The position numbers and the translations under genes were made by a program. From positions 1-64,000 of the forward strand of contig NZ_JANIPD030000041.1 of the NCBI RefSeq assembly GCF_024609215.1: a stretch of 64,000 nucleotides of DNA, in the 5' to 3' direction. The notes under the pieces were generated by a model. The model saw only the letters and a list, made by a program, of their open reading frames with translations. It did not search any database and was not told where the DNA came from. The DNA comes from Curtanaerobium respiraculi. GTDB lineage: Bacteria; Actinomycetota; Coriobacteriia; Coriobacteriales; Eggerthellaceae. Numbering within the stretch: the stretch's first letter is position 1; each line of letters begins with the position of its first letter. Positions 33,959 to 47,564 of the stretch are shown here, piece by piece.

Positions 33959-34024
33959 GATCCACGTGCGATAATCGATGCCAAGCGCTGTCGCGGCACA
34001 GCGATGGAGAAGAAAGGGAATGCA

Positions 34025-34993
34025 ATGGCCGAAATCATCCCCATGCCGAAGCACATCAAGGTGTTCAGCGGCACGGTAAATCCGGAATTGGCTGAGCAAA
34101 TCGCCAGCGAGCTCGAGCTGAATCTGGGCAAGGTGAAGATCGAGAAGTTCGCCAACGGCGAGATTTACGCCCGCTTCATGGAGAGCGTGCGCGGATGCGA
34201 CGTGTTCATCGTGCAGAGCGTTGCCGGCGAGCACATCAACGACGCCTTGATGGAGCTGCTCATCATGATCGATGCGGCCAAGCGCGCCAGTGCGCGCACC
34301 ATCTCCGCCGTGGTCAGCCATTACGGCTACGCTCGCCAAGAGCGCAAAGCCGCTTCCCGCGAGCCCATCACCGCCCGCTTGGTCGCCGACATGCTCACCG
34401 TCGCCGGTGCGACCAACATGATCACCGTCGATCTGCACCAAGACGCAATCCAGGGCTTCTTCGACATCCCCGTCAACCATATGACCGCGCTCGACCTGTT
34501 CGCCGATTACTTTCGGGCCAAGAACTGGAACCCCGAAGAGGTGTGCGTCGTTTCCCCCGACGTGGGGCGCGCCAAGGCGGCGAAGAAGTTCCAGACCAAG
34601 CTGGACAGCGACATCGCCATTATGCATAAGGACCGCCCGCGGCACAATCAAAGCGAGATCACCGCGCTGATCGGCGATGTGACGGATAAGATCTGCATCA
34701 TCAACGACGACATGATCGACACGGGCGGAAGCCTGTGCGCGGCCGCCGATACGTTGATGGCGAAGGGCGCTCGCGAGGTGTACGCTTGCGCGACGCACGG
34801 CATCTTCAGCGGCCCCGCGTATGAACGCATCGCGCAGTCGCAGATCAAGGAAGTCGTCGTCACCAATGCCGTGCCCGTTCCGGCCGATCGCTGCGGCGAC
34901 CATATCAAGGTGCTGTCCGTCGCCCCCTTGTTCGCTAAGACCATACAACGCGTTTTCGAGTACGGCAGCGTCGCGGCCCTCTTTCCCGACTAA
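34025..34993 (+). CDS. prs: Ribose-phosphate pyrophosphokinase
   Basis: Makes PRPP from ribose-5-phosphate and ATP for histidine, purine and pyrimidine synthesis. The 322 residues contain the FANGEIYARF, HYGYARQERK and IDTGGSLCAAAD (PRPP-binding) motifs. DMLTVAGATNMITVDLH is intact. ATG 34025 follows AAAGGGA. glmU-prs-pth is a common order in Gram-positives. Confidence 0.95.
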   Translation: MAEIIPMPKHIKVFSGTVNPELAEQIASELELNLGKVKIEKFANGEIYARFMESVRGCDVFIVQSVAGEHINDALMELLIMIDAAKRASARTISAVVSHYGYARQERKAASREPITARLVADMLTVAGATNMITVDLHQDAIQGFFDIPVNHMTALDLFADYFRAKNWNPEEVCVVSPDVGRAKAAKKFQTKLDSDIAIMHKDRPRHNQSEITALIGDVTDKICIINDDMIDTGGSLCAAADTLMAKGAREVYACATHGIFSGPAYERIAQSQIKEVVVTNAVPVPADRCGDHIKVLSVAPLFAKTIQRVFEYGSVAALFPD

Positions 34994-35002
34994 GAGGCGC
35001 TC

Positions 35003-35560
35003 GTGTATCTCATCGTCGGCCTGGGGAACCCAGGCGGGGAATACGAGCATACGCGCCATAACGCCGGCTTCGACACCGTGGACATCCTCGGCGCCGAAGC
35101 CGGTGCGCGCTATTGGAAGAGCGAGTGTGGCGCGCTGACCGCCAAAGGCGTGCTCGCGGGCGAAGATGTGGTGCTCGCCAAGCCCCAGAGCTTCATGAAC
35201 ACGAGCGGGGGGCCGGTCAAGCAGCTCTGCAACGCATACGGAGTCGCGCCCGATCACCTTATCGTCGTCCATGACGATCTGGATATCGCCCCCGGTTCCA
35301 TCCGCGTGAAGTTCGGCGGCGGCCATGCGGGCCATAATGGGCTTCGCAGCATATGCGACAAGCTGGGGACGCGCGACTGGTTCCGCATCCGGTGCGGCAT
35401 CGGGCGCCCTCCTGGAAGGATGCCGGTGGCGGACTTCGTGCTCTCGCGCCCGCGGCGCGAGGCAGAGGACGAGTTCGAGCAGACGTGCGGACTCGCGGCG
35501 GAGGCGGTCCCGTACCTCATACGAAACGGCTTGGACAAGGCCCAGCAGGAATTCAATTAG
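35003..35560 (+). CDS. pth: Peptidyl-tRNA hydrolase
   Basis: Pth frees tRNA from aborted peptidyl-tRNA. The 185 residues have the catalytic His in RHNAGFDTVD, the Asn and Asp in QSFMNTSGG and VVHDDLDI, and the GHNGLRSI block. Start GTG 35003, nine bases after prs. The last 55 codons are duplicated, with damage, at 43541-43784. Confidence 0.94.
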   Translation: MYLIVGLGNPGGEYEHTRHNAGFDTVDILGAEAGARYWKSECGALTAKGVLAGEDVVLAKPQSFMNTSGGPVKQLCNAYGVAPDHLIVVHDDLDIAPGSIRVKFGGGHAGHNGLRSICDKLGTRDWFRIRCGIGRPPGRMPVADFVLSRPRREAEDEFEQTCGLAAEAVPYLIRNGLDKAQQEFN

Positions 35561-35871
35561 CGGACAAGCCGATCATTGGAGTCTAGCTCCGACAATATCT
35601 CGTGGAGGCCGGGATTGCTTCATCGACGAGGGTTCTCATGTCGCCTGTCGGCAGGCCGGAAGGGCTCGATAGCGGGTTTAACATTGCCGATGCCCCATCC
35701 TCAACGAGGTCGGGTTTGAAGGGGTCGGGACAGCTTCGAGACCTGCTGCCCCCCAAGTTTCTGCCCCACGATGGTGGAGTTGTCGGCGAGCGTGAGGGGG
35801 AATGCCGTTCCTCTCGCTAGTCGTAGATGTCGCACCGCTTGGACGTGTTCGCGGCCCATCCCCGTCGTCCC
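35561..35871. other. Gap between pth and pyk with decayed coding traces
   Basis: No intact gene is present. On the minus strand several short frames read protein-like pieces (for example GLHEILSELDSNDRLV ending at the pth stop), but they are interrupted by stops and change frame. I read this as the remains of a small gene convergent with pth, similar in position to the toxin gene beside the broken pth copy at 43781. No assignment is possible. Confidence 0.35.
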
Positions 35872-37296
35872 TTAGAAGTGAATCTTGCTGACGGTTTCCA
35901 ACTTGATCATGTTGGTGGTGCCCCCTTGGCCGATGCGCCCGCCGGTGAGCACGATGTCGTCCCCGACCTTGAGCCCCAAGATCTTCACCACCTCCTGCAT
36001 GGCGTGGAAGAACAGCACGTCAAGCGATTCGTACTCGGGGCACAGCATGGGCAGTACGCCCCATGAAAGCGAGAGCTTGCGGTAGGTCTTCTCGTTCGTG
36101 GTCATGCCGATGATCTGCACCGGGCAGCGGAAACGGCTCACCATGCGCGCGGAAAGCCCGCTGATGGAGTTGATGACCATGCACGCCGCCCCCAAATCGA
36201 CCGCCATGGAGCATGCGGAGTGCGAGAGGGCGTCCAAATTGCAGCTGATGGTGAAGTCCATATGCCTGAACTTGCGCGCGTAGTCGATGCGCTCTTCAGT
36301 GTACCTCGCGATCTCCGCCATGGTTTCCACAGCTTCCACGGGATGCCTGCCCGCTGCCGACTCACCGGAAAGCATGACCGCCGAGGCACCGTCGTACACG
36401 GCGTTTGCCACATCGGAAATCTCTGCCCTGGTGGGGCGCACGTTGGTGATCATCGATTCGAGCATCTCCGTGGCGATGATGACGCGTTTGCCCAGCATCC
36501 GACACTTCGAGACGATCTCCTTCTGCACCGAGGGCACCGCCATGAAGGGGATCTCCACGCCCAGATCGCCGCGTGCCACCATGATGCCGTCGACAAACTC
36601 GGAGATCTCCTCCACGTTCGCCACGCCGGACTGGTTCTCGATCTTGGCGATCAGATCGATCTCCGCGCCGCCGTTGTCGTCCAAAAAGTCGCGGATCTCC
36701 TTCGCGTCGTCTGCGGTAGAGACGAAGGATGCGGCAACGAAGTCAACGTCGTTTTCGATGCCGAAGAGCAGGTCGGCCTTGTCCTGCTCGGAGAGGAACT
36801 CGTTGCGCATAAGACGCCCGGGAAAGTTCATGCTCTTCGTATCGGACAGCATGCCGCCCGCTTCCACGACGGTTTTCACGTCGCTGCCTTCAACTTGAAC
36901 GACCTTGCAAATGACCAGGCCGTCGTTCACCAGAATGCGGTCGCCCGGCTCCAAGTCGCGGGCCAGGCCCTTGTAATTCACCGATACCCGGGAGGCGTCG
37001 CCTTCTATGTCGTCTGTGGTGAAGGTGAACTCCTGACCGTCTTCGAGCGTCACCTCATGGCCAGCGAACGTGCCGATGCGGTATTCGGGCCCCTTGGTGT
37101 CCAGCATGATGGCCACGGGCAGGCCGAGCCTCTCGCGTACGCTCTTCACCGCGTTGATCTTCTCCAGGTGCCCTTCGTGCGTGCCGTGCGAGAAATTCAG
37201 TCGCGCGACGTTCATGCCCGCCTCGCACATACGCGCGAGCACATCCTCCGACTCGCTTGCTGGCCCTATGGTGCAGATGATCTTCGTCTTGCGCAT
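35872..37296 (-). CDS. pyk: Pyruvate kinase
   Basis: Transfers phosphate from PEP to ADP. The 474 residues include RKTKIICTIGPAS, ARLNFSHGTHEGH, the substrate and metal site MVARGDLGVEI and the signature region VRPTRAEISDVANAVYDG. A C-terminal domain of standard length follows; the extra PEP-utilising domain of Bacillus is absent. ATG 37296 is behind GAGAGGAGC; a longer frame upstream lacks a ribosome-binding site. It is next to the SorC-type regulator gene. Confidence 0.95.
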   Translation of the reverse strand: MRKTKIICTIGPASESEDVLARMCEAGMNVARLNFSHGTHEGHLEKINAVKSVRERLGLPVAIMLDTKGPEYRIGTFAGHEVTLEDGQEFTFTTDDIEGDASRVSVNYKGLARDLEPGDRILVNDGLVICKVVQVEGSDVKTVVEAGGMLSDTKSMNFPGRLMRNEFLSEQDKADLLFGIENDVDFVAASFVSTADDAKEIRDFLDDNGGAEIDLIAKIENQSGVANVEEISEFVDGIMVARGDLGVEIPFMAVPSVQKEIVSKCRMLGKRVIIATEMLESMITNVRPTRAEISDVANAVYDGASAVMLSGESAAGRHPVEAVETMAEIARYTEERIDYARKFRHMDFTISCNLDALSHSACSMAVDLGAACMVINSISGLSARMVSRFRCPVQIIGMTTNEKTYRKLSLSWGVLPMLCPEYESLDVLFFHAMQEVVKILGLKVGDDIVLTGGRIGQGGTTNMIKLETVSKIHF

Positions 37297-37375
37297 GTAT
37301 GCTCCTCTCTGTTTTGCGACCTTGCGTGCCCGCTCGCAATGGTGTGCGTATGCAGATCGATTCGGTACCGCTTGG

Positions 37376-38386
37376 TTATCTCTGGCTCCTCTGCTCTTCT
37401 TCATCGATGATTCGGAGAATCTCCCTCCCCAAGTCGCTGTCGACGATCAGCGTGTCGATGAAGTTGCCCTTCGCCGCGCAACGCACCCCGTAAGCTTTGT
37501 CCGTCCCCGAGGCTACGGTGACCTTGTTGGGAATTCTTTTGAATTGATCGGTTTCAATCGAGATCGTGCGATCCCTCAGCGGCGTGTCGCACTCGTTCCC
37601 ATCATGGTTGAAGAAGCGGATGGCGATGTCGCCCACCACGTTCTGCCCCCGCAAGCGTGCCACGTCTTCCGGTGGGATGAAGCTCGGCTCCGCAAGGATG
37701 GTGGTGGTCTTCGGATAGAACACGCCGATGCCGTTGATGGCGATGTTCACCTTGTCGAACATGTCGAACACGCCGGCGATGCTCTTCTCCCTTTTCAGCA
37801 CCTTCACCGTCTCGGGCGAGTCCATGAGCGTCTCCGTCAGCAGCACATGCATGGTGCCCGAGAACGCCTTTGCAATCTGGCTTACCAGGACGCGCACGTC
37901 CCATTCGGGCACGCTGCTGGCAAGGGATCCGTGCAGCGTCACGAAATCAGCGTTCACCTTTTGCGCGGGATTCAGGTACCCGATCATGGCGCATACGGTG
38001 CTGCCCCAGGTGAAGCCGATCACGTCGTTGTCGGTGATGATACGCTGCAGGTAGCGGGCCGCTTCGAGGGCGACTAGGTTCTTCACGTTGTCGCTTTCGC
38101 CGGTGGCGCCCCCGGGTTCCAGAGACACGGCTGGGGCGATGATGACGTCGCTGATTCCCAACCTCTCCTTCAGCTCCGTTTCAAGGTCCAGGCATTCCAC
38201 CAAGGGGTCGCGGATGACGAACTCGACGATCTTCTCCGCACGCGCCTTCTGGAGCAGGCGGGAGACAGTGGTGATGGAAATCTTCAGCACCTTCGCAATC
38301 TCCTGCTGGCTCTTCCCCGAGATGTAATACATATACGCTGCGCGAAGGACGAGCGACGTCGATTGATCATATTTGTTCGTAGGCAC
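37376..38386 (-). CDS. SorC/DeoR-family sugar-responsive regulator
   Basis: A 336-residue regulator with an N-terminal helix-turn-helix (QQEIAKVLKISITTVSRLLQKARAE) and a SorC-type sugar-phosphate binding domain (GFTWGSTVCAMI, and the final GTDKAYGVRCAAKG). It is divergent from the RuBisCO-like operon and almost certainly controls it. The likely inducer is a phosphorylated intermediate. The start is GTG 38386 behind AGGAGA. A minus-strand promoter TTGAAA-N17-AATAAT overlaps operator site 1 (38441-38453), suggesting autoregulation. Confidence 0.88.
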   Translation of the reverse strand: MPTNKYDQSTSLVLRAAYMYYISGKSQQEIAKVLKISITTVSRLLQKARAEKIVEFVIRDPLVECLDLETELKERLGISDVIIAPAVSLEPGGATGESDNVKNLVALEAARYLQRIITDNDVIGFTWGSTVCAMIGYLNPAQKVNADFVTLHGSLASSVPEWDVRVLVSQIAKAFSGTMHVLLTETLMDSPETVKVLKREKSIAGVFDMFDKVNIAINGIGVFYPKTTTILAEPSFIPPEDVARLRGQNVVGDIAIRFFNHDGNECDTPLRDRTISIETDQFKRIPNKVTVASGTDKAYGVRCAAKGNFIDTLIVDSDLGREILRIIDEEEQRSQR

Positions 38387-38440
38387 GGGCGATCTCCTGA
38401 CTCCTTAGTCTTATCACGGTTGCAAATTATTTGACATGTC

Positions 38441-38498
38441 GAAAATATTTTCAATGCCTCTGAGATGAAATAATTTTCAATCTAGTAAAATATTTTCA
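38441..38498. promoter_or_regulatory. Three AT-rich operator-like sites
   Basis: GAAAATATTTTCA (38441-38453), GAAATAATTTTCA (38467-38479) and TAAAATATTTTCA (38486-38498) are three near-identical copies. The first contains a perfect 12-bp palindrome. They lie between the divergent SorC-type gene and the RuBisCO-like gene. They are likely binding sites for the adjacent regulator. No strong minus-35 precedes TATAGT at 38506, which would fit activation. Confidence 0.7.
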
Positions 38499-38586
38499 TC
38501 CTCTATATAGTCATACCCACAAGGCGCCCTTGATATCAGCCGAACTCTACGAAAAGCAAGCGTTCGTTCCATCAGGAGGTAATGAG

Positions 38587-39930
38587 ATGATCCAGCAGAA
38601 CAGGTTTTACAACACGTTGCTCAATCCGCTTTACGAAGGCTGCCAGATCGACGATCTGTGCGTCGCAACCTATCTGGTAGGTGCAGCCAAGGAAGAGGGC
38701 GCCATTCTGAAAGCTGTCAGCATCGGCATCGAGCAGACCACCGGTTCCTGGGTGGACGTGCCCGCCGAGACCGACGAGATGCGCGCCAAGTACGCGTCGA
38801 AGATCATCGGCGTTTACGAGGTCCCGAACTACGAGAACCAAGCCAACGTCAACCTCGACGTCGCCCCCGACGGCATGCGCTTCTACATCATCCGCATCGG
38901 CTATCCCGTTGCCAACATCGAAGACAACATCCCGCTGCTCATCGGAAGCATCGCCGGCAACATCATGTCCATGCCGTTCCTGAAGCTGCTCGACATCGAC
39001 TTTCCGAAGAAGTTCGTCGACGCCTTCCAAGGCCCGAAATTCGGTATCCAGGGCATCCGCGACATCCTGGGCGCCCCGGAGCGTCCGCTGCTCAACAACA
39101 TGATCAAGCCCTGCACTGGCTATACCCCCGAAGTGGGCGCCAAGCTGTTCTTCGAAGCTGCGGCCGGCGGCGTTGACATTATCAAGGATGACGAGCTTAT
39201 CGGCGGCAACCGCGAGTTCAACAAGCTGGCCGACCGCGTGAAGCTGAACATGGAGGCCGTTGAGCGCGCCAAGGACATCAAGGGCGAGAACACCATCTAC
39301 TCCTGCAACATCACCGACGAGGTCTCCCGCCTGAAGGAAAACGCCATGACCGTCATCGAAAACGGCGGCAACATGATCATGATCGACATCCATGGCACCG
39401 GCTACTCCGCATGCCGCATGCTGGCGGAAGACCCCGACATCACCGTGCCCATCATGGCCCACTCCTGCTTCAACGGCGCCTTCACCGCCTCCCCCTACCA
39501 GGGTATGAGCTCCAAGGTCGTCAACAAGCTGGTGCGTCTGAGCGGTGCCGACATCTACCTGACCCAGCCGCCCTACGGCAAGTTCGACAACACGTTCGAC
39601 AACTACATCACCAACATCAACGCCTCCCAGGCGAAGTTCTACGACCTCAAGCCCATGCTTCCCTTCGTGGGCGGCGGCGTCATCCCCGGCCTGGTTCCCC
39701 AGTTCGTGGACGACTGCGGCTCCGACGTGCTGCTGGGCGTCGGCGCCGGCATCCATGCCCATCCGATGGGGCCCCGCGCCGGCGCAATCGCGTTCCGCGC
39801 TGCCATCGATGCGGTCATGGAAGGCGTCAACCTGCACGAAAAGGCCAAGGGCTGCGAAGAGCTGCAGGTTGCCATCGACAAATGGGGAATCTACGGCGAA
39901 GACCATAGCAAAGACCTCTACGCGATCTAG
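38587..39930 (+). CDS. RuBisCO-like protein (form IV)
   Basis: A 447-residue member of the RuBisCO superfamily. FQGPKFGIQ and LLNNMIKPCTGYTPE match the region of K175. The carbamylated-lysine and metal motif is complete (GGVDIIKDDE). LSGADIYLTQPPYGKF aligns without gaps to the loop-6 strand and keeps the lysine equivalent to K334. K177 is replaced by Cys, H327 by Leu, S379 by Gly and N123 by Leu. It is therefore not a CO2-fixing RuBisCO but keeps the metal-enolate machinery. Form IV proteins include a methionine-salvage enolase and decarboxylases/transcarboxylases of sugar-acid phosphates. The neighbours (sugar-acid kinase, PdxA2) favour the second class. AGGAGGT precedes ATG 38587. Confidence 0.92.
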   Translation: MIQQNRFYNTLLNPLYEGCQIDDLCVATYLVGAAKEEGAILKAVSIGIEQTTGSWVDVPAETDEMRAKYASKIIGVYEVPNYENQANVNLDVAPDGMRFYIIRIGYPVANIEDNIPLLIGSIAGNIMSMPFLKLLDIDFPKKFVDAFQGPKFGIQGIRDILGAPERPLLNNMIKPCTGYTPEVGAKLFFEAAAGGVDIIKDDELIGGNREFNKLADRVKLNMEAVERAKDIKGENTIYSCNITDEVSRLKENAMTVIENGGNMIMIDIHGTGYSACRMLAEDPDITVPIMAHSCFNGAFTASPYQGMSSKVVNKLVRLSGADIYLTQPPYGKFDNTFDNYITNINASQAKFYDLKPMLPFVGGGVIPGLVPQFVDDCGSDVLLGVGAGIHAHPMGPRAGAIAFRAAIDAVMEGVNLHEKAKGCEELQVAIDKWGIYGEDHSKDLYAI

Positions 39931-39947
39931 GATAAGCTGATGGAATA

Positions 39948-39998
39948 GGAGGGGCTCGAATCGACTGTCCGAAAGACGGACGGAAGATCGGCCCCTCC
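39948..39998 (+). promoter_or_regulatory. Compound hairpin between RuBisCO-like and permease genes
   Basis: Outer arms GGAGGGGC and GCCCCTCC enclose an inner GTCCG/CGGAC hairpin with AAAGA loop. No U-run follows. It probably tunes distal gene expression by RNA processing or partial termination. Confidence 0.6.
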
Positions 39999-40021
39999 TT
40001 CAGTTAGAGGAGGACTGAACC

Positions 40022-41125
40022 ATGATCATGCGATTTATCAAGAGGGTACCGGCCGGCATGATGGTCGTGCCCCTGCTGCTCGGCTGCCTGATCAACACCT
40101 TCTTCCCCCAAGCCCTTCAAATCGGCGGCATCACCACCGCCACGTTCTCGAGCGCCGGATCCAGCTGCATCCTGGGCATCCTGCTGTTCTGCATGGGCAC
40201 CAACCTGCAGGTGAAGGAGATGCCGGCGGTGCTCAAGCGCGGCGGCATCCTGCTGGTGTCGAAGTTCGCCATCGGCGCCATCCTGGGCATCCTGGTGGGC
40301 ACGATCTTCGGCCCCGCCGGCGTTCTGGGGCTCACCCCGCTCGCCATCATCTGCGCCGTCACCAACAGCAACGGCAGCATCTACTTCGCCATCTGCCAGG
40401 AGTACGGCGACGACAAGGACCAGGCTGCGTTCGCCCTGCTCGCGCTGAACGACGGACCGTTCCTCACCATGGTCGCGCTGGGCTTCAGCGGGCTGGCGAA
40501 CATCCCCTTCATGAATCTGGTCGCTGCCCTGATCCCCATCGCCCTGGGAATGCTCGTGGGCAACCTGGACCACGAGTGCCAGAAGCTCTTCGGGCCGCTC
40601 GGCAACGCGGTCATCCCGTTCGTCGGTTTCGCCCTGGGCGCCGGCATCAACCTTCAGAGCGTTATCGCTGGCGGCCTGTCCGGCGTGCTGCTCGCCTTCG
40701 TCGTCATCTTCGTCGGCGGCTTATTCATCCTGTTCTTCGATAGGATAGTGGGCAAACGACCGGGTTACGCGGCGTGGGCCGTTGCGACGACGGCAGGTAA
40801 CGCCGTTGCCGTGCCCGCCGCGGTCGCCTCCGCCGACGTCGCGCTGGAAGGCGTCGCCACCATCGCCACCGTCCAAGTTGCCGCCTGCACCGTCGTCACC
40901 GCCATCGTGGTTCCGCTGCTGGCCAGCTGGTGGGCCAAGCGCTACGGCTGCCTGCGCATCCCGCAAGGCACCCATGGCGTGGACAAGATGTACCTGGGCC
41001 ATCCGTATAATCCCGAAGCGGAGGTAGCGGCGGAACTCATTGCCGAAGCCGAGGAGGAGAAGGCCGAAGAGGAGGCTGCCGCGGTGGCGGCAGCGAGCGT
41101 TGAGAAAGGTCCCGGAAAAGACTGA
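40022..41125 (+). CDS. KdgT-family sugar-acid permease
   Basis: A 367-residue integral membrane protein with about ten hydrophobic helices, similar to 2-keto-3-deoxygluconate permease (KdgT) throughout (RFIKRVPAGMMVVPLLLG start, then TNSNGSIYFAICQEYGD, LNDGPFLTM and VATTAGNAVAVPAAVA). It probably imports a sugar acid by proton symport. The C-terminal about 30 residues are a cytoplasmic Glu/Ala tail. AGAGGAGG precedes ATG 40022. It is the second gene of the operon, so it likely supplies the pathway's substrate. Confidence 0.88.
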   Translation: MIMRFIKRVPAGMMVVPLLLGCLINTFFPQALQIGGITTATFSSAGSSCILGILLFCMGTNLQVKEMPAVLKRGGILLVSKFAIGAILGILVGTIFGPAGVLGLTPLAIICAVTNSNGSIYFAICQEYGDDKDQAAFALLALNDGPFLTMVALGFSGLANIPFMNLVAALIPIALGMLVGNLDHECQKLFGPLGNAVIPFVGFALGAGINLQSVIAGGLSGVLLAFVVIFVGGLFILFFDRIVGKRPGYAAWAVATTAGNAVAVPAAVASADVALEGVATIATVQVAACTVVTAIVVPLLASWWAKRYGCLRIPQGTHGVDKMYLGHPYNPEAEVAAELIAEAEEEKAEEEAAAVAAASVEKGPGKD

Positions 41126-41154
41126 CCGATTCCACCTTCCAAGAGGGGGCGAAG

Positions 41155-42366
41155 ATGAACACGTATCTGATAATCGCCGACGACTTCACCGGAAGCTGCG
41201 ATGCCGGCGTGAGCATGGCAAAGAACGGCATCGAGGTGCACGTTGTCTCCGACCCGAACAAGATGATCGCGGGGAAATCCTACGTGATCGACACGGAATC
41301 GCGCAACATCGATGCCGAGCAGTCCCGCCAAGCCGTCACGATTGCGGCGAAGGCCGCCAAGGAGCTTGATTTCGATTACTATTACAAGAAGGTCGACTCC
41401 ACGCTTCGCGGGCACATCCGCACCGAGATCAGCGCCATCACCGACGTGCTGGACATCGACCTGATTGTCTTCAACTCGGCCTGTCCCGACGCCGCGCGCA
41501 CGGTGACGGATGGCAACCTGTATTTCAACGGCATCATCCTGTGCGAGACGGAAATCGCCCTCGATCCGTTCTTCCTGTGCACCGAGAGCAATCTGGCAAA
41601 GATCATCGGCCCCTGCGTCGACGGTTCCGTGCAGAGCTTCGACCTGAAGAGCATCCGCAGCGGGCAGATTGCATGGGACGGTTCGAAGGCCATCACCTTC
41701 GACACCGAAACCAACGATGGCATCGATAGGATCGTCGAGTATGTGCTGACGCTGGGGAAGAAGGTGCTGTTCGTCGGGTCCGCGGGCATGGCGAACAGCC
41801 TGATCAAAATCGTCAACCGCCCCAACCCTGCGCTTGCGTTGGTGGGAAGCATCAGCGACACGTCGCGCGCCCAGGTGCGATTTGCGGAGGAAAAGGGCGC
41901 CCAGGTGGTCAAGCTGGACATGCGCGGCCTGATGAAGGACGGCAGCCCCGAGCGCTTCATCAGCCAGGCGCTCGACAGCCTGAAGAGCGGCTACGACACT
42001 GTCGTGTGCTCGGCGTACGACTACCGGGATTACCTTGACACCGTGAAGGTCGCCCAGGAGCTGGGAATGACCAAAGAGCAGTCGTCGAAGCGGACCCAGG
42101 CGATCTTGGGCGAGGTGGGAACCGCAATCGTCTCCCAGTTCGCCGTGTCCGGCGTGTTCCTGACCGGCGGCGACACCGCCATCAGCTTCATCGGCCAAGC
42201 CGATTCCGACTCGTGCGAGATCCTGTCCGAACCGCTTCCCATCATTCCCCAGATCAGGCTGGACAGCGGCATGTTCGCCGGCCTGAACTGCATTGCAAAG
42301 GGGGGCTCCATCGGCACCCCCGAAACCATCGATTACTGTTTCAACTATCTCAAGCAGCATCAGTAG
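41155..42366 (+). CDS. DUF1537 four-carbon-acid sugar kinase
   Basis: This 403-residue kinase belongs to the DUF1537 family that phosphorylates D-threonate, D-erythronate and 3-oxo-sugar acids at C4. The N-terminal substrate domain has IADDFTGSCDAG and KKVDSTLRG, and the C-terminal nucleotide-binding domain has SGVFLTGGDTAISF. It presumably phosphorylates the imported acid before the PdxA2 or RuBisCO-like step. ATG follows AAGAGGGGG. The gap to pdxA2 is 18 bases. Confidence 0.92.
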   Translation: MNTYLIIADDFTGSCDAGVSMAKNGIEVHVVSDPNKMIAGKSYVIDTESRNIDAEQSRQAVTIAAKAAKELDFDYYYKKVDSTLRGHIRTEISAITDVLDIDLIVFNSACPDAARTVTDGNLYFNGIILCETEIALDPFFLCTESNLAKIIGPCVDGSVQSFDLKSIRSGQIAWDGSKAITFDTETNDGIDRIVEYVLTLGKKVLFVGSAGMANSLIKIVNRPNPALALVGSISDTSRAQVRFAEEKGAQVVKLDMRGLMKDGSPERFISQALDSLKSGYDTVVCSAYDYRDYLDTVKVAQELGMTKEQSSKRTQAILGEVGTAIVSQFAVSGVFLTGGDTAISFIGQADSDSCEILSEPLPIIPQIRLDSGMFAGLNCIAKGGSIGTPETIDYCFNYLKQHQ

Positions 42367-42384
42367 AAACCAGGAGGAACCATC

Positions 42385-43356
42385 ATGATCAACGGCATCA
42401 CCGTAGGCGACCCCGCGGGCGTCGGCCCCGAAATCGTCCTGAAAGCCCTGAAGCGCGCGGGCGAGTATCAAGCCCAGTACGTGGTATACGGCCCCACGAA
42501 GATCATGGAGTACTACAATGGCAAATTCGACCTGGGCTTCAAGTTCAGGGAAATCGAGACCCCCGAAGAGTACGAAGACGGGTTCGTGAACATGATCAAC
42601 TGCAAGGACATGTCCATGGACGATTTCGAGGTGGGCCAGCTTTCCGCCGAATGCGGCGACGCCGCCTACCAGTACCTGGTGCGCGCGATCCACGATGCCA
42701 TGGACGGCAAGATCGGCGCTGTGGTGACCGCGCCGCTGAACAAGGAGGCCATGCATATGGGCGGTCACATGTTCGACGGGCACACCGAGGTCCTGGCCAC
42801 CGAGACCGGCACCGAGAAGTACGCCATGATGTTCATGGGGCCGGTGAAGATCGTGCACGTGTCCACGCACGTCTCCTTGAAGGAAGCCATCAACCGCGTG
42901 AAGAAGGAGCGCGTCCTCACGTGCATCGAGTTCGCCGACGACATCATGAAGAAGTCCGGCATCGACCATCCCAGCGTGGCCGTTGCCGGCGTGAACCCCC
43001 ATGCCAGCGAGAACGGCCTGTTCGGCGATGAGGAAGCCAAGGAGATCATCCCGGCCATCGAGGCTGCCAAGGCCAAGGGCATCAACGCCATAGGCCCGCT
43101 GCCCCCGGACTCCATCTTCGCGAAGAACCTCAAGGGCGTGTACGACGTGACCATCGCCATGTACCATGACCAGGGGCATATCGCCGCGAAGATGGGCAAC
43201 GTGGACAAATGCGTCAACTGCACGCTGGGCCTTCCCATCATCCGCACCTCCGTGGACCATGGCACGGCGTTCGACATCGCCGGCAAGGGCATCGCATCCG
43301 AGGAGAACATGCTCGAATCCATGAAGTACGCCGAGGTGTTCCAGTCGAGAAGTTAA
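42385..43356 (+). CDS. PdxA-family (PdxA2) phosphohydroxy-acid dehydrogenase
   Basis: A 323-residue NAD(P)-dependent dehydrogenase of the PdxA fold. Metal-binding histidines lie in FDGHTEVLA, THVSLKEA and MYHDQGHIAAK. The GDPAGVGPEIVLKAL start is typical. Classical PdxA oxidises 4-phosphohydroxythreonine for vitamin B6. The PdxA2 group, found beside DUF1537 kinases, oxidises D-threonate or D-erythronate 4-phosphate and decarboxylates them to DHAP. Operon context supports PdxA2. AGGAGG precedes ATG. It ends the operon; damaged sequence follows. Confidence 0.9.
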   Translation: MINGITVGDPAGVGPEIVLKALKRAGEYQAQYVVYGPTKIMEYYNGKFDLGFKFREIETPEEYEDGFVNMINCKDMSMDDFEVGQLSAECGDAAYQYLVRAIHDAMDGKIGAVVTAPLNKEAMHMGGHMFDGHTEVLATETGTEKYAMMFMGPVKIVHVSTHVSLKEAINRVKKERVLTCIEFADDIMKKSGIDHPSVAVAGVNPHASENGLFGDEEAKEIIPAIEAAKAKGINAIGPLPPDSIFAKNLKGVYDVTIAMYHDQGHIAAKMGNVDKCVNCTLGLPIIRTSVDHGTAFDIAGKGIASEENMLESMKYAEVFQSRS

Positions 43357-43540: not shown

Positions 43541-43784
43541 CCGCATCCGGTGCGGCATCGGCAGCAAAGGCCGCCGGGCCGCATGCCGGTGGCGGACTTC
43601 GTGCTCTCGCGCCCGCGGCGCGAGTGTGGACGGTAGGGTGTTTTTACCCCTACGTGGATAAACTTCTTGACATTTGCACGCGAGTGCAAAGGACGAGTTC
43701 GAGCAGACGTGCGGACTCGCGGCGGAGGCGGTTCCGTACCTCATACGAAACGGCTTGGAAAAGGCCCAGCAGGAATTCCATTAG
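43541..43784 (+). pseudogene. Partial, interrupted copy of pth 3' end
   Basis: From 43541 (CGCATCCGGTGCGGCATCGG) to the stop at 43782-43784 the sequence closely repeats the last 55 codons of pth (35393-35560). Residues MPVADFVLSRPRRE are present, then at 43627 a 60-base insert interrupts, then ADVRTRGG-equivalent codons resume in a shifted frame. A few extra bases near 43562 also shift the frame. There is no 5' half. It is a non-functional duplicate that abuts the toxin gene. Confidence 0.85.
43619..43686. mobile_element. 60-bp insert flanked by 8-bp direct repeats
   Basis: CGCGAGTG occurs at 43619-43626 and again at 43679-43686, flanking a 52-base core. This looks like a target-site duplication, because the intact pth has only one such junction. 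The core contains a hairpin GTAGGGT...ACCCCTAC, and TTTGCAC-GCGA-GTGCAAA lies across the right end. It is too small for a transposase, so a miniature element or an excision footprint is likely. Confidence 0.6.
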
Positions 43785-44071
43785 CCGAACAGCTCGTCAT
43801 GCGAACCCGTCCTCTGGAAGACTGCGAGTCCGTTGCCGGTGCGCCACACGAGCAGCCAGTCCCCTGCGTTAGCGATATGGCACTCGTTGCTGTCCGCCCA
43901 GCTCCCGTGCAGCTGGTACATGTTGCGATGCCGCTTAAGCTCTTCTTTGGATCCGTTGGTGTCCTCGAGCACAAGATTGACGGCCTCTTTGAGCGGGTTC
44001 AAGTCTATATGCTTCTTTGCCAGGCGCTTTAAGTCCCTTGCGAACTGTCCGGTGTACTTCGCGGTGAGCAT
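43781..44071 (-). CDS. YafQ-family mRNA interferase toxin, no antitoxin seen
   Basis: A 96-residue RelE-superfamily toxin most like YafQ, which cleaves mRNA in the ribosome. The C-terminal GDWLLVWRTGNGLAVFQRTGSHDELFG region is characteristic (split here as GDWLLVWRTGNGL then VFQRTGSHDELFG), with the active-site His in GSHDELFG and a second in CHIANAGDW. The expected DinJ/RelB antitoxin upstream (beyond 44071) is absent; the recJ fusion begins only 95 bases away. Its stop overlaps the broken pth copy by four bases. Confidence 0.85.
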   Translation of the reverse strand: MLTAKYTGQFARDLKRLAKKHIDLNPLKEAVNLVLEDTNGSKEELKRHRNMYQLHGSWADSNECHIANAGDWLLVWRTGNGLAVFQRTGSHDELFG

Positions 44072-44165: not shown

Positions 44166-47100
44166 ATGTCCGCAAGGTTTAACATCCAAGCGGCGGATGC
44201 CGCCGCTGTAGGCGTGCTGCAACGCACGCTCAATCTCCCCCGGTTCATAGCGACGACGCTGGTGGCCCGCGGCGTCGACACGCCGCAGAAGACGCAGGAG
44301 TTCCTTTCCCCGTCGCTCGAGCGCGATTGGCTGAACCCCTACATCATCCCCGGCATGGGGGAGGTCGTCGACGGGTTGGAGGCGGCCCTGCGCGCGAGCC
44401 TGCGCATACTGGTGTTCGGCGATTTCGACCTCGACGGCATCAGCGCGACGACGGTGCTGACGCGGGGGCTGCGGGTTCTGGGGGGCGACGCGGTCCCATT
44501 CATCCCGCGCCGTTCGGACGAGGGGTATGGCCTCACCGAAGCCGCCATCGACCGGTTCATGGCGTTCGAGCCCGATGTGGTCATCACGGTGGATTGCGGA
44601 ATAAGCTGCCGCGAGGAGGTCACCCTGCTTCAGCATCGGGGCGTCTCCGTGTTCATCACCGATCACCACGAACCCGGCGACCAAGTGCCTCAGGACGTGC
44701 CGGTGTGCGATCCCAAGGTCGATCCCGGCAATCCCAGCAGCGTGCTCGCGGGGGTGGGCGTCGCCCTGAAGATCGTGCAGGCCCTGGGCGCGCGCTTCGG
44801 CCAGCCCCATTTGTGGCGCGAATTCACGGATATCGCCACGTTGGGAACGGTCGCGGACCTCGTCCCCCTGGTGGGGGGCAATCGCGCGCTGGTCGCCGAC
44901 GGGGTGCGCCGCATGAACGCCGCCCCCCGCCCCGCCATCGCAGCGCTGCTCGCCGCGGCGGGCGTGGCCGACAAGCCTGTTGCGGCGACCTCGCTCTCGT
45001 TCAGCGCGATCCCGCGGTTGAACGCCGCCGGCAGGATGGGCGACGCCCAGGTGGCGCTCGATTTGCTGCTGGAGGACGATTTCAACGAGGCGAGCCGGAA
45101 GGCCGTGCGTCTCGAGGAAATCAACGACCAACGGCGCGCCATCGAGGCGGAGCTCGCCGAGATCGCCCGCCTGCAGGCTCAGGAGGTCTACCACGGCCAA
45201 CGCGCCCTGGTGGTCTCCGGAGAGGGTTGGCACGAGGGCGTGAAGGGAATCGTCGCCAGCCGCCTCGTGCGGACGTACGGCGTGCCCGTCATACTGTTCG
45301 CCATCGACGACGCCGGCGAGGCGCGCGGAAGCGGTCGAAGCGTCGGGCAGGTGAACCTGTTCAAAGCGGTCGAAAGCTGCGCCGACCTGCTCACACGGTT
45401 CGGCGGCCACGAGGCCGCGGTGGGGGTCACGCTTCCCGCCGACAAGCTTCCCGAATTCACCGAGCGGCTCTGCTCCTTCATGGACGGACTCCCGCCCGAG
45501 CTGTTCCATCCGCGCATCGATATCGATGCGGTGATCGACTTGGGCGAGCTCACGCTCGAGAATATCGAAAAAATGGAGGAGCTCGCCCCCTTCGGTCAGG
45601 AGAACCGCCAGCCGCGCTTCCTGGCCCAGGGCGTGCTCATGACGCGCAGCCGCGCCGTCGGTGCGGATAAGAACCATCTGTCGACCACGCTTTCCGACGG
45701 TCGCAATTCCATTGCGGGCATCATGTTCCACGCGGGCAGCAGCATCGAATCGCTGTTGCGGTGCTCGTGCGTGGTGGATGCCGCATTCGAGGTGCAGATC
45801 GACGAATGGCGCGGGCGCCGCAGCGTGAAGGCCCTGCTGACGTCCGTCGCCCCGGCGAAGCCATGCTGCGCGCTGGAATCCATGATCGAGCCCGAGCACC
45901 GCTCGTTCGTGGCGGGGCTGTTCGCCACCGATGACGACGAACTCTGCGCCGACTGCCAGGATGACGGCTCCGAGTGCATCGGGAGCATAGAGGCGGCCGA
46001 GGAGAGGCGCGAGCAGTGGAGGGCGCGCGCCCAGGAGGATCCGAGCGGCCTGCGCAGTTCCCTAGTCCGCTCCTTCATAGGGGAGGGCAGCCTGTTCCCC
46101 TCGCAGCAACGCGTGCTGGACGCTCTGCAAAAGGATGCGTCCACGCTTGCCGTCATGGCGACGGGGCGTGGGAAATCCCTGGCATTCCAGGTGGAGGCGG
46201 CCCGCCGTGCGCTGGAGCTGGGCCAGGCGAGCCTGCTCGTTTACCCGCTGCGCGCCCTCATCGCGGACCAGGCCTATCATCTGGCCTCGGCGCTCGACCG
46301 CTTCGGAATCGACGTCGAGGTCGTCACCGGCTCCTCCACGCCGGAGGAACGGCACGCGGTGTTCGACGGCATCGCGGACGGCACGGTGGATATCGTGCTC
46401 ACCACGCCCGAGTTCCTCGGCTACCATGCGGCGGAATTCGCCCGGTCGGGGCGTATCGGGTTCGCCGTCATCGACGAAGCCCACCATATCGGCCAGGCAC
46501 GCGCGGGCAACCGCATGGCATATGCCAGCATGGGGAAGCAGATCGCCGCGCTGGGCGATCCGGTGGTCCTCGCCCTCACCGCCACCGCCGACGCACGCGC
46601 CGCCTCCGAGATCGAAGGGCAGCTGCGCATCGAAAACCGCGTGCTCGACGATGCCGATCGCCCCAACATCCAGCTGGACGACCAGCGCAACATCCGCTTC
46701 CGGGAGAGCTACCTCGCCAATATCATCGCGACGGGCGAGAAGACCGTCGTCTACGTCAACTCGCGCAAGCGGAGCGTGACGCTCGCGCGCGAGCTTCGCA
46801 AACTGGTGCCCCAGATGGCGCCGTTCATCGGGTTCTACAACGCCGGCTTGCCGCGCTCCGATCGCGAGCGGGTGGAGGAGATGTTCCGCGGAGGCCAGAT
46901 GAACGTGCTCATATCCACGAGCGCGTTCGGAGAGGGTGTGAACATCCCCGACATACGCCACGTGGTGCTGTTCCATCTCCCGTTCAACGATGTGGAGTTC
47001 AATCAAATGAGCGGCCGCGCCGGCCGCGACGGCGAGCCCGCCTGCGTGCATCTGCTGTTCGGATCGGCGGATGCGCGCATCAACCAGGGCATCTTGGAGG

Positions 47101-47564
47101 ACTCCACCCCCGGCCATGATACGATGGCACAGGTGTACCGCGAATTGAAGCGTTTGAGCCAGGGCGCCGAAGCCGGCTTGGTGCATGTGTCCGACTCCGA
47201 TCTCGCGGCCGCATGCGGCAACCGGGTCCCCGGCCACAAGGTGGCGCCCGCATCCGTCTCGTGCGCCATCGCGGTGTTCCGGGAGCTCGGCCTTGTCGAG
47301 ACGGCCATATCCGATACCGAAGACGGCCAGGAGCGCGCCATCCGTTTCGTTCCCGGCAAGAGCAGGGTGGAGCTGACCGACAGCGTGCGCTATCGCGAGG
47401 GACTCGGCGAGATGGACGAGTTCAACGCGTTCTGCGCCTGGGTGATGAAGAGCCCCGTCGCGGTGCTGCTCGACCGCATCAGCCGTCCTATTCTTCCGAG
47501 CGAGACGGCGCGGCAGAGCGTTCCGCCGTTCCCGGAAAGGGGGGATCGACATGGGCGAGATTGA
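44166..47564 (+). CDS. RecJ nuclease fused to RecQ-like helicase
   Basis: One chain of 1132 residues. Residues 1-600 are RecJ, a 5'-3' single-strand exonuclease: motif I FGDFDLDGISATT near 86, DHH motif ITDHHEPGD and DHHA1 motif RFGGHEAAVGV, plus the OB-like domain. Residues about 640-970 are a superfamily 2 helicase resembling RecQ: Walker A MATGRGKSLAFQ near 664, VIDEAHHIGQ near 768, and QMSGRAGRDGEPA. The remaining about 160 residues are a winged-helix-like tail. RecQ and RecJ act together in the RecF pathway, so a fusion couples unwinding to resection. ATG 44166 follows GAAGG. It overlaps rel by 14 bases. Confidence 0.92.
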   Translation: MSARFNIQAADAAAVGVLQRTLNLPRFIATTLVARGVDTPQKTQEFLSPSLERDWLNPYIIPGMGEVVDGLEAALRASLRILVFGDFDLDGISATTVLTRGLRVLGGDAVPFIPRRSDEGYGLTEAAIDRFMAFEPDVVITVDCGISCREEVTLLQHRGVSVFITDHHEPGDQVPQDVPVCDPKVDPGNPSSVLAGVGVALKIVQALGARFGQPHLWREFTDIATLGTVADLVPLVGGNRALVADGVRRMNAAPRPAIAALLAAAGVADKPVAATSLSFSAIPRLNAAGRMGDAQVALDLLLEDDFNEASRKAVRLEEINDQRRAIEAELAEIARLQAQEVYHGQRALVVSGEGWHEGVKGIVASRLVRTYGVPVILFAIDDAGEARGSGRSVGQVNLFKAVESCADLLTRFGGHEAAVGVTLPADKLPEFTERLCSFMDGLPPELFHPRIDIDAVIDLGELTLENIEKMEELAPFGQENRQPRFLAQGVLMTRSRAVGADKNHLSTTLSDGRNSIAGIMFHAGSSIESLLRCSCVVDAAFEVQIDEWRGRRSVKALLTSVAPAKPCCALESMIEPEHRSFVAGLFATDDDELCADCQDDGSECIGSIEAAEERREQWRARAQEDPSGLRSSLVRSFIGEGSLFPSQQRVLDALQKDASTLAVMATGRGKSLAFQVEAARRALELGQASLLVYPLRALIADQAYHLASALDRFGIDVEVVTGSSTPEERHAVFDGIADGTVDIVLTTPEFLGYHAAEFARSGRIGFAVIDEAHHIGQARAGNRMAYASMGKQIAALGDPVVLALTATADARAASEIEGQLRIENRVLDDADRPNIQLDDQRNIRFRESYLANIIATGEKTVVYVNSRKRSVTLARELRKLVPQMAPFIGFYNAGLPRSDRERVEEMFRGGQMNVLISTSAFGEGVNIPDIRHVVLFHLPFNDVEFNQMSGRAGRDGEPACVHLLFGSADARINQGILEDSTPGHDTMAQVYRELKRLSQGAEAGLVHVSDSDLAAACGNRVPGHKVAPASVSCAIAVFRELGLVETAISDTEDGQERAIRFVPGKSRVELTDSVRYREGLGEMDEFNAFCAWVMKSPVAVLLDRISRPILPSETARQSVPPFPERGDRHGRD

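What the first reader, a model, noticed from the sequence alone, without database searches (positions are those of the whole stretch)
37376..43356. Candidate undescribed sugar-acid pathway built on a RuBisCO-like protein
Seen: a SorC-type regulator diverges from a tight operon of a form IV RuBisCO-like protein, a KdgT-type permease, a DUF1537 kinase and a PdxA2-type dehydrogenase. Known: DUF1537 kinase plus PdxA2 converts D-threonate or D-erythronate to DHAP. Separately, RuBisCO-like proteins acting on 3-oxo-isoapionate 4-phosphate occur in D-apiose catabolism, also after a DUF1537 kinase, with a different oxidoreductase upstream. Inference: here import, phosphorylation, oxidation by PdxA2 and then decarboxylation or transcarboxylation by the RuBisCO-like protein form a shorter route for a sugar acid, possibly branched. 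If PdxA2 alone gives DHAP, the RuBisCO-like step would be redundant, so the real substrate is probably not plain threonate.
Basis: partly seen in the sequence, partly recalled or inferred. Interest (0 to 1): 0.88.

Follow-up and report, generated by a model that had tools for sequence, protein, structure and literature searches.

The report
RuBisCO-like enzyme with interchangeable sugar-processing genes
A bacterium carries an apparently acquired gene island in which a RuBisCO relative sits beside sugar-acid enzymes, and comparison with its relatives, where the neighbouring enzymes are swapped for sugar-alcohol-type ones, suggests that the RuBisCO relative rearranges a small four-carbon sugar phosphate rather than acting only on the acid as first proposed.

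Summary
In detail: a SorC-type regulator diverges from an RLP-KdgT-DUF1537-PdxA operon. The RLP passes no NCBIfam cut-off, neither MtnW nor OiaX. It keeps the RuBisCO catalytic set but has lost the second phosphate site.

The main evidence is comparative. In the 32 closest full-length loci the module beside the RLP is swapped: kinase-PdxA (7), glycerol-kinase-like plus GlpA-like dehydrogenase (17), two phosphotransferase/dehydrogenase types (3+3), other (2). SorC is in 22 of 32 loci, and one palindromic operator serves both main module types. RLP-linked GlpK-type kinases have a changed glycerol pocket in 25 of 25. Two acid operons add TIM- and RpiB-family genes, as erythritol and OiaX loci do.

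Best model: the RLP enolises a tetrulose-1-phosphate, acting like the epimerase EryC; in the window a branched C5 acid would feed it. Carboxylation to 3-phosphoglycerate is not excluded. No activity was measured. The ~8-kb island is flanked by a repeated pth end, so it looks acquired.

The parts
35003..35560 (+). pth (peptidyl-tRNA hydrolase), host gene at the left border of the island
   Evidence: ORF; 74-75% identical to pth of the genus mate G190, with the same gene (34004-34993, 86%) upstream in both
35408..35576 (+). left copy of the direct repeat (3' end of pth)
35872..37299 (-). pyruvate kinase, downstream of SorC on the same strand; inside the repeats
   Evidence: Pfam PK 405 bits; a match at E <= 1e-40 in 15 of 31 genomes including the own one, none in the genus mate G190
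37376..38386 (-). SorC/DeoR-type sugar-binding regulator
   Evidence: Pfam Sugar-bind 196 bits; 46-67% identical SorC in 22 of 32 RLP loci
38440..38453 (.). putative operator site 1, CGAAAATATTTTCA (1 mismatch to TGAAAATATTTTCA)
   Evidence: 3 sites in the window, 0.02 expected, 0 of 100 shuffles with 3 or more
38466..38479 (.). putative operator site 2 (2 mismatches)
38485..38498 (.). putative operator site 3 (2 mismatches)
38587..39930 (+). RuBisCO-like protein, 447 aa from the ATG with an AGGAGG upstream (ORF open from TTG 38530)
   Evidence: up to 89% identical to full-length copies in Mediterraneibacter and Drancourtella records
40022..41125 (+). KdgT-family permease
   Evidence: Pfam KdgT 384 bits; 66-69% identical in 5 module-A loci
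41155..42366 (+). DUF1537 (four-carbon acid sugar kinase family) kinase; the divergent member among the acid operons
   Evidence: Pfam SBD_N + NBD_C; 44-45% to the other window-type kinases, while L006, L007 and L017 are 62-79% alike
42385..43356 (+). PdxA-family protein, presumed oxidative decarboxylase
   Evidence: TIGR00557 341 vs cut-off 290; nearest solved 4jqp, 2hi1, 6e85 (D-threonate 4-phosphate dehydrogenase)
43571..43800 (+). right copy of the direct repeat (pth 3' end, two blocks, 91% identical, 61 extra bases between them)

Best explanation
The RLP acts on a monophosphorylated four-carbon ketose, tetrulose-1-phosphate (CH2OP-CO-CHOH-CH2OH), through the RuBisCO-type Mg2+/carbamate-stabilised 2,3-enediolate, and re-protonates it, so that it works as an epimerase/isomerase: what EryC does in the erythritol pathway. 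Interchangeable upstream modules make that ketose phosphate. In the window the steps would be: KdgT imports a sugar acid; the DUF1537 kinase phosphorylates it; PdxA oxidises the carbinol next to CH2OP with loss of CO2; the RLP converts the resulting erythrulose-1-phosphate into the isomer that host isomerases turn into erythrose-4-phosphate; the pyruvate kinase on the island draws the carbon to pyruvate with ATP. For PdxA to leave a tetrulose-1-phosphate the acid must be a C5 acid branched at C2 (isoapionate-like). Shown by sequence: the genes, the swapped modules, the shared regulator family and operator-like site, the residues kept and lost, the changed kinase pocket. Inferred: the substrate, the reaction, the operator's function, and the identity of the acid (weakest).
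For: Module swap around one RLP clade: 7 acid-type, 17 glycerol-kinase/FAD-dehydrogenase, 3 EIIC-GAT + Zn-dehydrogenase, 3 PTS-IIBC + SDR, 2 other, of 32 loci. The acid modules are nested among the glycerol-kinase type on the RLP tree, and in P. alactolyticus the two RLPs (90% identical) are sisters with different modules. One operator-like site in both module types: 35 exact sites in 21 of 32 loci (0.2 expected), 33 of 35 intergenic, 0 of 47 more distant loci. RLP-linked GlpK-type kinases lack the F270-equivalent in 25 of 25, while 19 of 20 other GlpKs from RLP-carrying genomes have it; 15 of 18 glycerol-kinase-type genomes searched carry that ordinary GlpK elsewhere. TIM + RpiB directly after PdxA in L017 and L013; transketolase halves + RpiB-like in L023; DhaK and/or DhaL in L021 and L025. 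The erythritol-type locus L159 has the order FGGY, G3P-DH-like, TIM-barrel, SorC-type regulator, DeoR, TIM, RpiB (gene names by order, recalled). The EryC-LerI-DerI route is described in PMC10733421 and PMC5992420 (passages). P2-site residues are lost; E60, N123, K175, K201, D203, E204, H294, K334 are kept in 79 of 79 relatives and the window.
Against: No activity was measured. In the window genome one TIM, one RpiB and one transaldolase were found, none in the island, so the exit to erythrose-4-phosphate rests on host enzymes; in the genome of L006, with the same operon type, no transaldolase match was found and only one TIM and one RpiB. Only 2 of 5 window-type acid loci of other genomes carry TIM + RpiB. 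Four TIM paralogues of RLP loci form their own clade and are not clearly kin of EryH/LerI; two from Acetobacterium, away from the RLP, group with these. They miss the TIM cut-offs, one model only narrowly (130.1 vs 130.6). Strict conservation of K334, E60 and N123 is more than a mere epimerase seems to need. Enolase and pyruvate kinase in Desulfosporosinus RLP operons (L045, L046), enolase in L081 and pyruvate kinase on the island hint at phosphoglycerate as product. The NCBIfam glycerol-kinase cut-off is passed by the three RLP-linked kinases tested (L010, L037, L045). The EIIC of L027 scores best on ascorbate models. No structure model could be made.
Confidence: 0.42

Rival explanations
1. 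One reading: the RLP acts directly on the beta-keto acid made by PdxA (3-oxo-isoapionate-4-phosphate or similar), decarboxylating it or moving the carboxylate, as OiaX and its transcarboxylase/hydrolase relative do.
For: K334 and E60, which handle the carboxylate in RuBisCO (recalled), are kept. A known RLP-DUF1537-TIM-RpiB operon exists (L161) that differs from the L013/L017 operons mainly in the oxidoreductase. DUF1537 stands directly beside RLPs in L089, L090, L091, L129 and L130.
Against: PdxA enzymes decarboxylate by themselves (recalled). The RLP scores 191 of 700 on the OiaX model and lacks the R295/H327 kept by those five DUF1537-linked RLPs. In 23 of 32 close loci another module stands in place of DUF1537-PdxA, though what the two phosphotransferase types (6 loci) bring in is unknown.
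Confidence: 0.2
2. The RLP is a true carboxylase of a ketose-1-phosphate: tetrulose-1-phosphate + CO2 + H2O gives 3-phosphoglycerate + glycolate (with DHAP it would give 3-phosphoglycerate + formate). Carbon then runs through enolase and pyruvate kinase.
For: All eight residues of the RuBisCO carboxylation set are invariant in 79 of 79 relatives; of the RLPs compared, MtnW, OiaX and L131 each changed one or more of E60, N123, K334 or E204. Enolase in L045 and L081 by curated model and in L046 by clustering with them; pyruvate kinase in L045, L046 and on the window's island, downstream of SorC.
Against: TIM, RpiB or transketolase genes in L013, L017, L021, L023 would be pointless. L131 (beside mtnA, presumed isomerase) also keeps E60 and N123, so these are no proof of carboxylation. 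Pyruvate kinase is sporadic in this bacterial family and may have other uses. The histidine phosphatase in several RLP loci is phosphatase-like, not a clear phosphoglycerate mutase.
Confidence: 0.18
3. The acid module is an ordinary D-threonate (or erythronate) to DHAP route, and the RLP is a passenger or acts on something else.
For: The best kinase model is the D-threonate one, below cut-off, and a D-threonate-4-phosphate dehydrogenase model is among the PdxA hits, below cut-off; 6e85 (D-threonate 4-phosphate dehydrogenase) is among the nearest solved PdxA relatives.
Against: Same operator-like site and regulator family as in RLP loci with no acid module; the RLP is the best conserved protein of the island against L006 and L007 (89% against 44-68%), unlike a passenger; TIM + RpiB follow PdxA in two loci.
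Confidence: 0.13
4. DUF1537 + PdxA recycle 4-hydroxythreonine for vitamin B6 and the RLP is unrelated.
For: STM0162 (DUF1537) phosphorylates 4-hydroxy-L-threonine (passage in PMC10971088).
Against: A dedicated sugar-type regulator, a KdgT permease and an RLP in the same operon; recurrence with TIM + RpiB.
Confidence: 0.03

Closest known systems
OiaX / 3-oxo-isoapionate-4-phosphate RLPs of D-apiose catabolism (Carter et al. 2018, recalled; described second-hand in passages of PMC6302742; examples L161, L086)
   Same: RLP with a DUF1537 kinase; L161 has TIM and RpiB genes after them, as L013 and L017 have after PdxA
   Different: About 30% identity; OiaX model 191 of 700 bits; R295/H327 lost here; PdxA in place of the L161 oxidoreductase; most close relatives have no DUF1537-PdxA pair
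Erythritol pathway EryA-EryB-EryC-EryH-EryI (Brucella; PMC5992420, PMC10733421, passages; Rhizobium example L159)
   Same: Kinase + G3P-dehydrogenase-like oxidation + SorC-type regulator (+ TIM + RpiB in some RLP loci); the RLP would fill the place of EryC
   Different: EryC is a TIM-barrel protein of another family; glycerol-kinase-like and FAD dehydrogenase of L010 only 22-26% identical to the L159 proteins; here an RLP
DUF1537 + PdxA2 D-threonate pathway (Zhang et al. 2016, recalled)
   Same: Kinase and PdxA families; [quoted passage not shown]
   Different: Both proteins miss the curated D-threonate models; operator-like site shared with other modules, TIM + RpiB in two sister operons
RLP of 'Candidatus Hakubanella' (PMC7325909, passages)
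   Same: Its authors suggest an RLP acting as an epimerase on sugars, from neighbouring epimerase and DeoR-type sensor domains, so an epimerase role for an RLP has been proposed before
   Different: No substrate was proposed in the passages seen, and the paper's terms PdxA and apiose do not occur; relation to this clade not tested
MtnW, 2,3-diketo-5-methylthiopentyl-1-phosphate enolase
   Same: Best solved relatives by sequence (2oej, 2oek); monophosphate substrate
   Different: Below the MtnW cut-offs (309 of 409, 267 of 514); E60, N123, K334 kept here, changed in MtnW
RuBisCO forms I-III
   Same: Carbamate lysine, Mg ligands, K175, H294, E60, N123, K334
   Different: R295, H327, S379 and K177 replaced, so no second phosphate site; 30% identical to a Sinorhizobium form I and 33-34% to the three RLP/RuBisCO matches in genomes of the same class

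Membership tests
OiaX equivalog | score over the NCBIfam OiaX cut-off (700) | tested here: not met
   191 bits
OiaX equivalog | acts on 3-oxo-isoapionate-4-phosphate | not testable with these tools
   no assay
MtnW enolase | score over the MtnW cut-offs (409 and 513.6) | tested here: not met
   309 and 267 bits
RuBisCO form I-III carboxylase | two phosphate sites including R295, H327, S379 (residue roles recalled) | tested here: not met
   in the window S, L and G; in the 79 relatives R295 and H327 are always replaced, S379 is G in the 42 nearer ones and S or G in the other 37
RuBisCO form I-III carboxylase | catalytic set K175, K201, D203, E204, H294, K334, E60, N123 | tested here: met
   all present in the window and in 79 of 79 relatives; presence does not show carboxylation
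DUF1537 four-carbon acid sugar kinase family | SBD_N and NBD_C domains over cut-off | tested here: met
   153 and 76 bits
D-threonate kinase DtnK | score over the NCBIfam cut-off (450) | tested here: not met
   228 bits
D-threonate 4-phosphate dehydrogenase PdxA2 | score over the NCBIfam cut-off (583) | tested here: not met
   316 bits; passes only the general pdxA model
Ordinary glycerol kinase (RLP-linked GlpK-type kinases of relatives) | glycerol pocket with the F270-equivalent (role recalled) | tested here: not met
   replaced in 25 of 25 RLP-linked kinases, present in 19 of 20 others; the general GlpK cut-off is passed by the three tested, L010, L037 and L045
Erythritol-type pathway | TIM- and RpiB-family isomerases in the operon | tested here: inconclusive
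   both in L013 and L017, TIM without RpiB in L021, RpiB-like in L023; absent from the window island, one TIM and one RpiB in its genome
EryC-type D-erythrulose-1-phosphate 3-epimerase (works like, not member) | 3-epimerase activity | not testable with these tools
   no assay; a different protein family from EryC

The most novel reading that the evidence does not exclude
This RLP family, found in records of Acetobacterium, Sporomusa, Lachnospiraceae, Chloroflexi and archaea, is a second kind of RuBisCO-type carboxylase: it adds CO2 to a four-carbon ketose-1-phosphate and splits it into 3-phosphoglycerate and glycolate, serving anaerobic growth on polyols and sugar acids instead of autotrophy.
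Probability: 0.15. Interest if true: 0.93.

Novelty: new variant of a known kind. Interest (0 to 1): 0.7.

Why it matters
Many RLPs have no assigned reaction (PMC7325909 says so for the relatives it names). Here one family's substrate can be bracketed from the outside, because the RLP and its regulator stay the same while the genes that would make its substrate are exchanged. If right, it gives RuBisCO's misprotonation step (epimerisation at C3, recalled) a physiological role, fills the EryC position of a tetritol pathway in anaerobes (several from animal guts by their record names), and joins sugar-acid and sugar-alcohol catabolism at one ketose phosphate. The prediction can be tested in an E. 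coli selection strain that already exists (PMC10733421).

Tried and rejected
Glycerol/DHAP as common substrate: considered because the RLP-linked kinases L010, L037 and L045 pass the GlpK cut-off; set aside because the pocket residue is changed in 25 of 25 and ordinary GlpKs exist elsewhere in 15 of 18 genomes. Histidine phosphatase as phosphoglycerate mutase: rejected, best models are phosphatases, all below cut-off. E60/N123/K334 as proof of carboxylation: not kept, because the mtnA-linked L131 keeps E60 and N123. TIM paralogue as LerI/EryH: unresolved. Empty insertion site in relatives: looked for in G190, G179, G153, G030; neither the gene right of the island nor the two after it nor pyruvate kinase was found near pth in the 16-18 kb fetched (in the query for the right-hand gene was read out of frame), so the insertion rests on the repeat alone. 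L048 (truncated RLP, a near-copy of L006) was left out of all counts; loci cut by contig ends (such as L012, L015) were kept, so 'absent' there is weak. The 80 loci are the best 80 of 198 relatives found by pattern seeds, so the counts describe that set. Module labels were assigned by me. The operator was found by eye in the window and 16 loci and then counted in all, so its count in the close clade is partly circular; the counts in the 47 distant loci and in the whole own genome (6 places with up to 2 mismatches, 3 of them in the RLP/SorC gap) are not.

Not in print, as far as seen: the 10 library searches listed no paper whose title or shown abstract start joins an RLP to erythrulose phosphate, erythritol or a glycerol-kinase module; two searches listed only 20 of 173 and 30 of 703 papers. 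Passages were read in PMC7325909, PMC6302742, PMC12928451, PMC10580937, PMC10733421, PMC5992420, PMC11316390, PMC10971088 and PMC8920986; no paper was read whole. Carter 2018 and Zhang 2016 are not held and are recalled, so a statement in them about this clade cannot be excluded.

Full report
OBSERVATION. The five genes are as described. The RLP most likely starts at 38587. The kinase and PdxA belong to their families but miss the curated D-threonate models; the RLP misses every NCBIfam model that it hits. The nearest solved proteins of the RLP are MtnW enolases, at the level of general kinship.

SETTING. The window lies in a 2.5-Mb genome in 44 contigs, 99.5% complete. DUF1537 occurs in 1 of 41 genomes searched (own plus relatives), the own one. 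An RLP or RuBisCO match occurs in 4 of 296 genomes of the class including the own; the other three are only 33-34% identical. Of these, L004 has the full RuBisCO residue set and L005 too but for a gap at position 60; L003 was not compared. The RLP is up to 89% identical to full-length copies in Mediterraneibacter and Drancourtella records. The 3' end of pth (35408-35576) is repeated at 43571-43800, 91% identical, with 61 extra bases. Between the copies lie pyruvate kinase, SorC and the RLP operon. A pyruvate kinase match was found in 15 of 31 genomes and not in the genus mate. So the island looks acquired, perhaps with its pyruvate kinase; an empty site was not found.

MODULE SWAP. The single scan of genome contigs matched 213 stretches; 198 encode a relative and the best 80 were kept. 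In the 32 with full-length RLPs 58-89% identical to the window's, the genes around the RLP fall into types: KdgT-DUF1537-PdxA as in the window (L006, L007, L008, L013, L017), a divergent DUF1537-PdxA pair (L009, L018), glycerol-kinase-like FGGY + FAD dehydrogenase + NAD/FAD oxidoreductase + DUF1667 (17 loci; in L012 and L015, cut by contig ends, only part is seen), EIIC-GAT phosphotransferase + Zn-dehydrogenase (L026, L027, L032), PTS-IIBC + SDR (L031, L033, L034), other (L011, L025). The EIIC of L027 scores best on ascorbate-PTS models, below cut-off, so this type may carry something other than a polyol. In 10 further loci (48-52%) a GlpK-like kinase is present in 10 of 10, GlpA-like in 8 and GlpC-like in 8 (Sporomusa, Desulfosporosinus, Propionibacteriaceae and others). 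A SorC 46-67% identical is in 22 of the 32 loci and in 1 of these 10 (38%). On the RLP tree the acid types lie inside the glycerol-kinase type; none of A, A', B and C is one side of a branch. Pseudoramibacter alactolyticus has two RLPs, sisters, 90% identical, one with a divergent acid pair (L009), one with the glycerol-kinase module (L019). The RLP is therefore the fixed part and the substrate-making enzymes the variable part.

REGULON. A palindrome TGAAAATATTTTCA was seen in the SorC/RLP gap of acid loci and upstream of SorC in glycerol-kinase-type loci. The window has three sites, all in 38440-38498; 0.02 are expected. The exact core GAAAATATTTTC occurs 35 times in 21 of 32 loci (0.2 expected), 33 of 35 between genes, mostly upstream of RLP, SorC or the FAD dehydrogenase, also of an FGGY kinase (L015, L036) and a histidine phosphatase (L008); the two inside ORFs probably lie in over-extended ORF starts. 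It occurs in 0 of 10 and 0 of 37 more distant loci. In the whole own genome the only cluster of sites is this gap. One regulator family and one site for both module types suggest one effector, hence one shared intermediate. Binding was not tested.

SIZE OF THE SUBSTRATE. The three RLP-linked kinases tested (L010, L037, L045) pass the general GlpK cut-off, but in all 25 of this type the phenylalanine of the glycerol pocket (F270 of E. coli GlpK, recalled) is V, T or C; in 20 other GlpK-like kinases from RLP-carrying genomes it is kept in 19, the exception being L109. Of 18 glycerol-kinase-type genomes searched, 15 hold such an ordinary GlpK elsewhere; in those of L014, L022 and L037 none was found. 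So the kinase substrate is probably not glycerol. In L017 PdxA is followed directly by a TIM-family gene and an RpiB gene; in L013 likewise, with further RpiB and phosphatase genes. The TIM proteins of L013, L017 and L021 miss the TIM cut-offs, on one model narrowly; with that of L126 they form a clade apart from eight housekeeping TIMs, with unsure kinship to EryH/LerI. L023 has both halves of a transketolase and an RpiB-like gene; L021 has DhaK and L025 DhaK and DhaL; in P. alactolyticus a DhaK/DhaL/TIM cluster (L126) lies 17-19 kb from the RLP. The same families make up the erythritol-type locus L159 (kinase, G3P-DH-like, TIM-barrel, SorC-type regulator, DeoR, TIM, RpiB) and follow OiaX and its kinase in L161. 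Papers describe EryC as D-erythrulose-1-phosphate 3-epimerase (PMC10733421) or tetrulose-4-phosphate racemase (PMC5992420), followed by LerI/EryH, a TIM-family protein, and DerI/EryI, an RpiB-family protein (passages). This points to a four-carbon ketose phosphate.

ACTIVE SITE. Against form I RuBisCO, E60, N123, K175, K201, D203, E204, H294 and K334 are kept in the window and in 79 of 79 relatives; K177 is C in all; R295 and H327 are lost in all, and S379 is G in the 42 nearer ones. So one phosphate site remains, and the enolisation residues are intact. MtnW changed E60, N123 and K334; OiaX has D at 60 and G at 123; the mtnA-linked L131 keeps E60 and N123 but has R for K334 and H for E204; the five DUF1537-linked RLPs compared keep everything including R295 and H327. 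Residue roles are recalled.

MECHANISM. One ketose-1-phosphate enediolate explains the modules: deprotonation of D-erythrulose-1-phosphate from a polyol, or PdxA's product from a branched C5 acid, with reprotonation to the usable isomer. The PdxA logic (oxidation next to CH2OP, loss of CO2) is recalled chemistry and dictates a C2-branched acid; a linear pentonate would give erythrulose-4-phosphate instead. This last step is the weakest. In the window genome one TIM, one RpiB and one transaldolase were found, so an exit to erythrose-4-phosphate is possible but unsupported by dedicated genes.

RESULTS AGAINST. Enolase in L045 and L081 (curated model) and L046 (clustering), pyruvate kinase in L045 and L046 and on the island fit phosphoglycerate as product, as the invariant carboxylation residues do. 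The genome of L006, with the window's operon type, gave no transaldolase match. The window's kinase is the outlier of its kind (44-45% to L006, L007, L008, L013 and L017), so its acid may differ from that of the sister operons. PdxA of L008 appears in two frames. An epimerase role for an RLP, without substrate, has been suggested before (PMC7325909).

VERDICT. Observation confirmed; interpretation partly supported; a new variant of a known kind: an RLP family without assigned reaction for which comparison narrows the substrate to a ketose-1-phosphate.

Noticed in passing
window 35408-35576 and 43571-43800: The 3' end of pth is duplicated around the island; the right copy carries 61 extra bases with a small palindrome, perhaps a further insertion.
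   Followed up: partly
window 44166-47564: A protein joining a RecJ-type nuclease (DHH, DHHA1, RecJ_OB) to a DEAD/Helicase_C helicase in one reading frame.
   Followed up: no
window 41155-42366: The island's DUF1537 kinase is only 44-45% identical to its counterparts, which are 62-79% alike among L006, L007 and L017, although the RLP beside it is up to 89% identical: a mosaic operon or a change of substrate.
   Followed up: partly
L008 4433-5412: PdxA of the Blautia sp. An249 operon matches in two pieces in different ORFs: a broken gene or a sequencing error.
   Followed up: no
L045 12834-15947, L046 6396-9484, L081 11855-13141: Enolase, and in Desulfosporosinus also pyruvate kinase, inside or near RLP operons.
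   Followed up: partly
L057, L065, L073, L083, L084, L085 and, without the phosphatase, L061, L062, L071, L075, L079: Another RLP context: PEP_hydrolase-like proteins, UPF0261 in most, and in the first six a 2-phosphosulfolactate-phosphatase-like protein beside the RLP, often with a GlpP-type antiterminator or SorC. Function unknown.
   Followed up: no
L131 1-3607: An RLP beside mtnA and split DXP-synthase/transketolase-like genes on a Pararhizobium plasmid.
   Followed up: partly
L036 1429-12276: Four FGGY kinases in one locus, with operator-like sites before three different genes, one of them an extra FGGY kinase.
   Followed up: no
L049, L054, L059, L063, L064, L067, L070, L078: Saccharopine-dehydrogenase-like protein near the RLP in archaeal, Chloroflexi and other loci, with an FGGY kinase in some of them.
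   Followed up: no
L009 8235-8879: A putative cyclase (PF04199) between the divergent acid kinase and the RLP in Pseudoramibacter alactolyticus.
   Followed up: no
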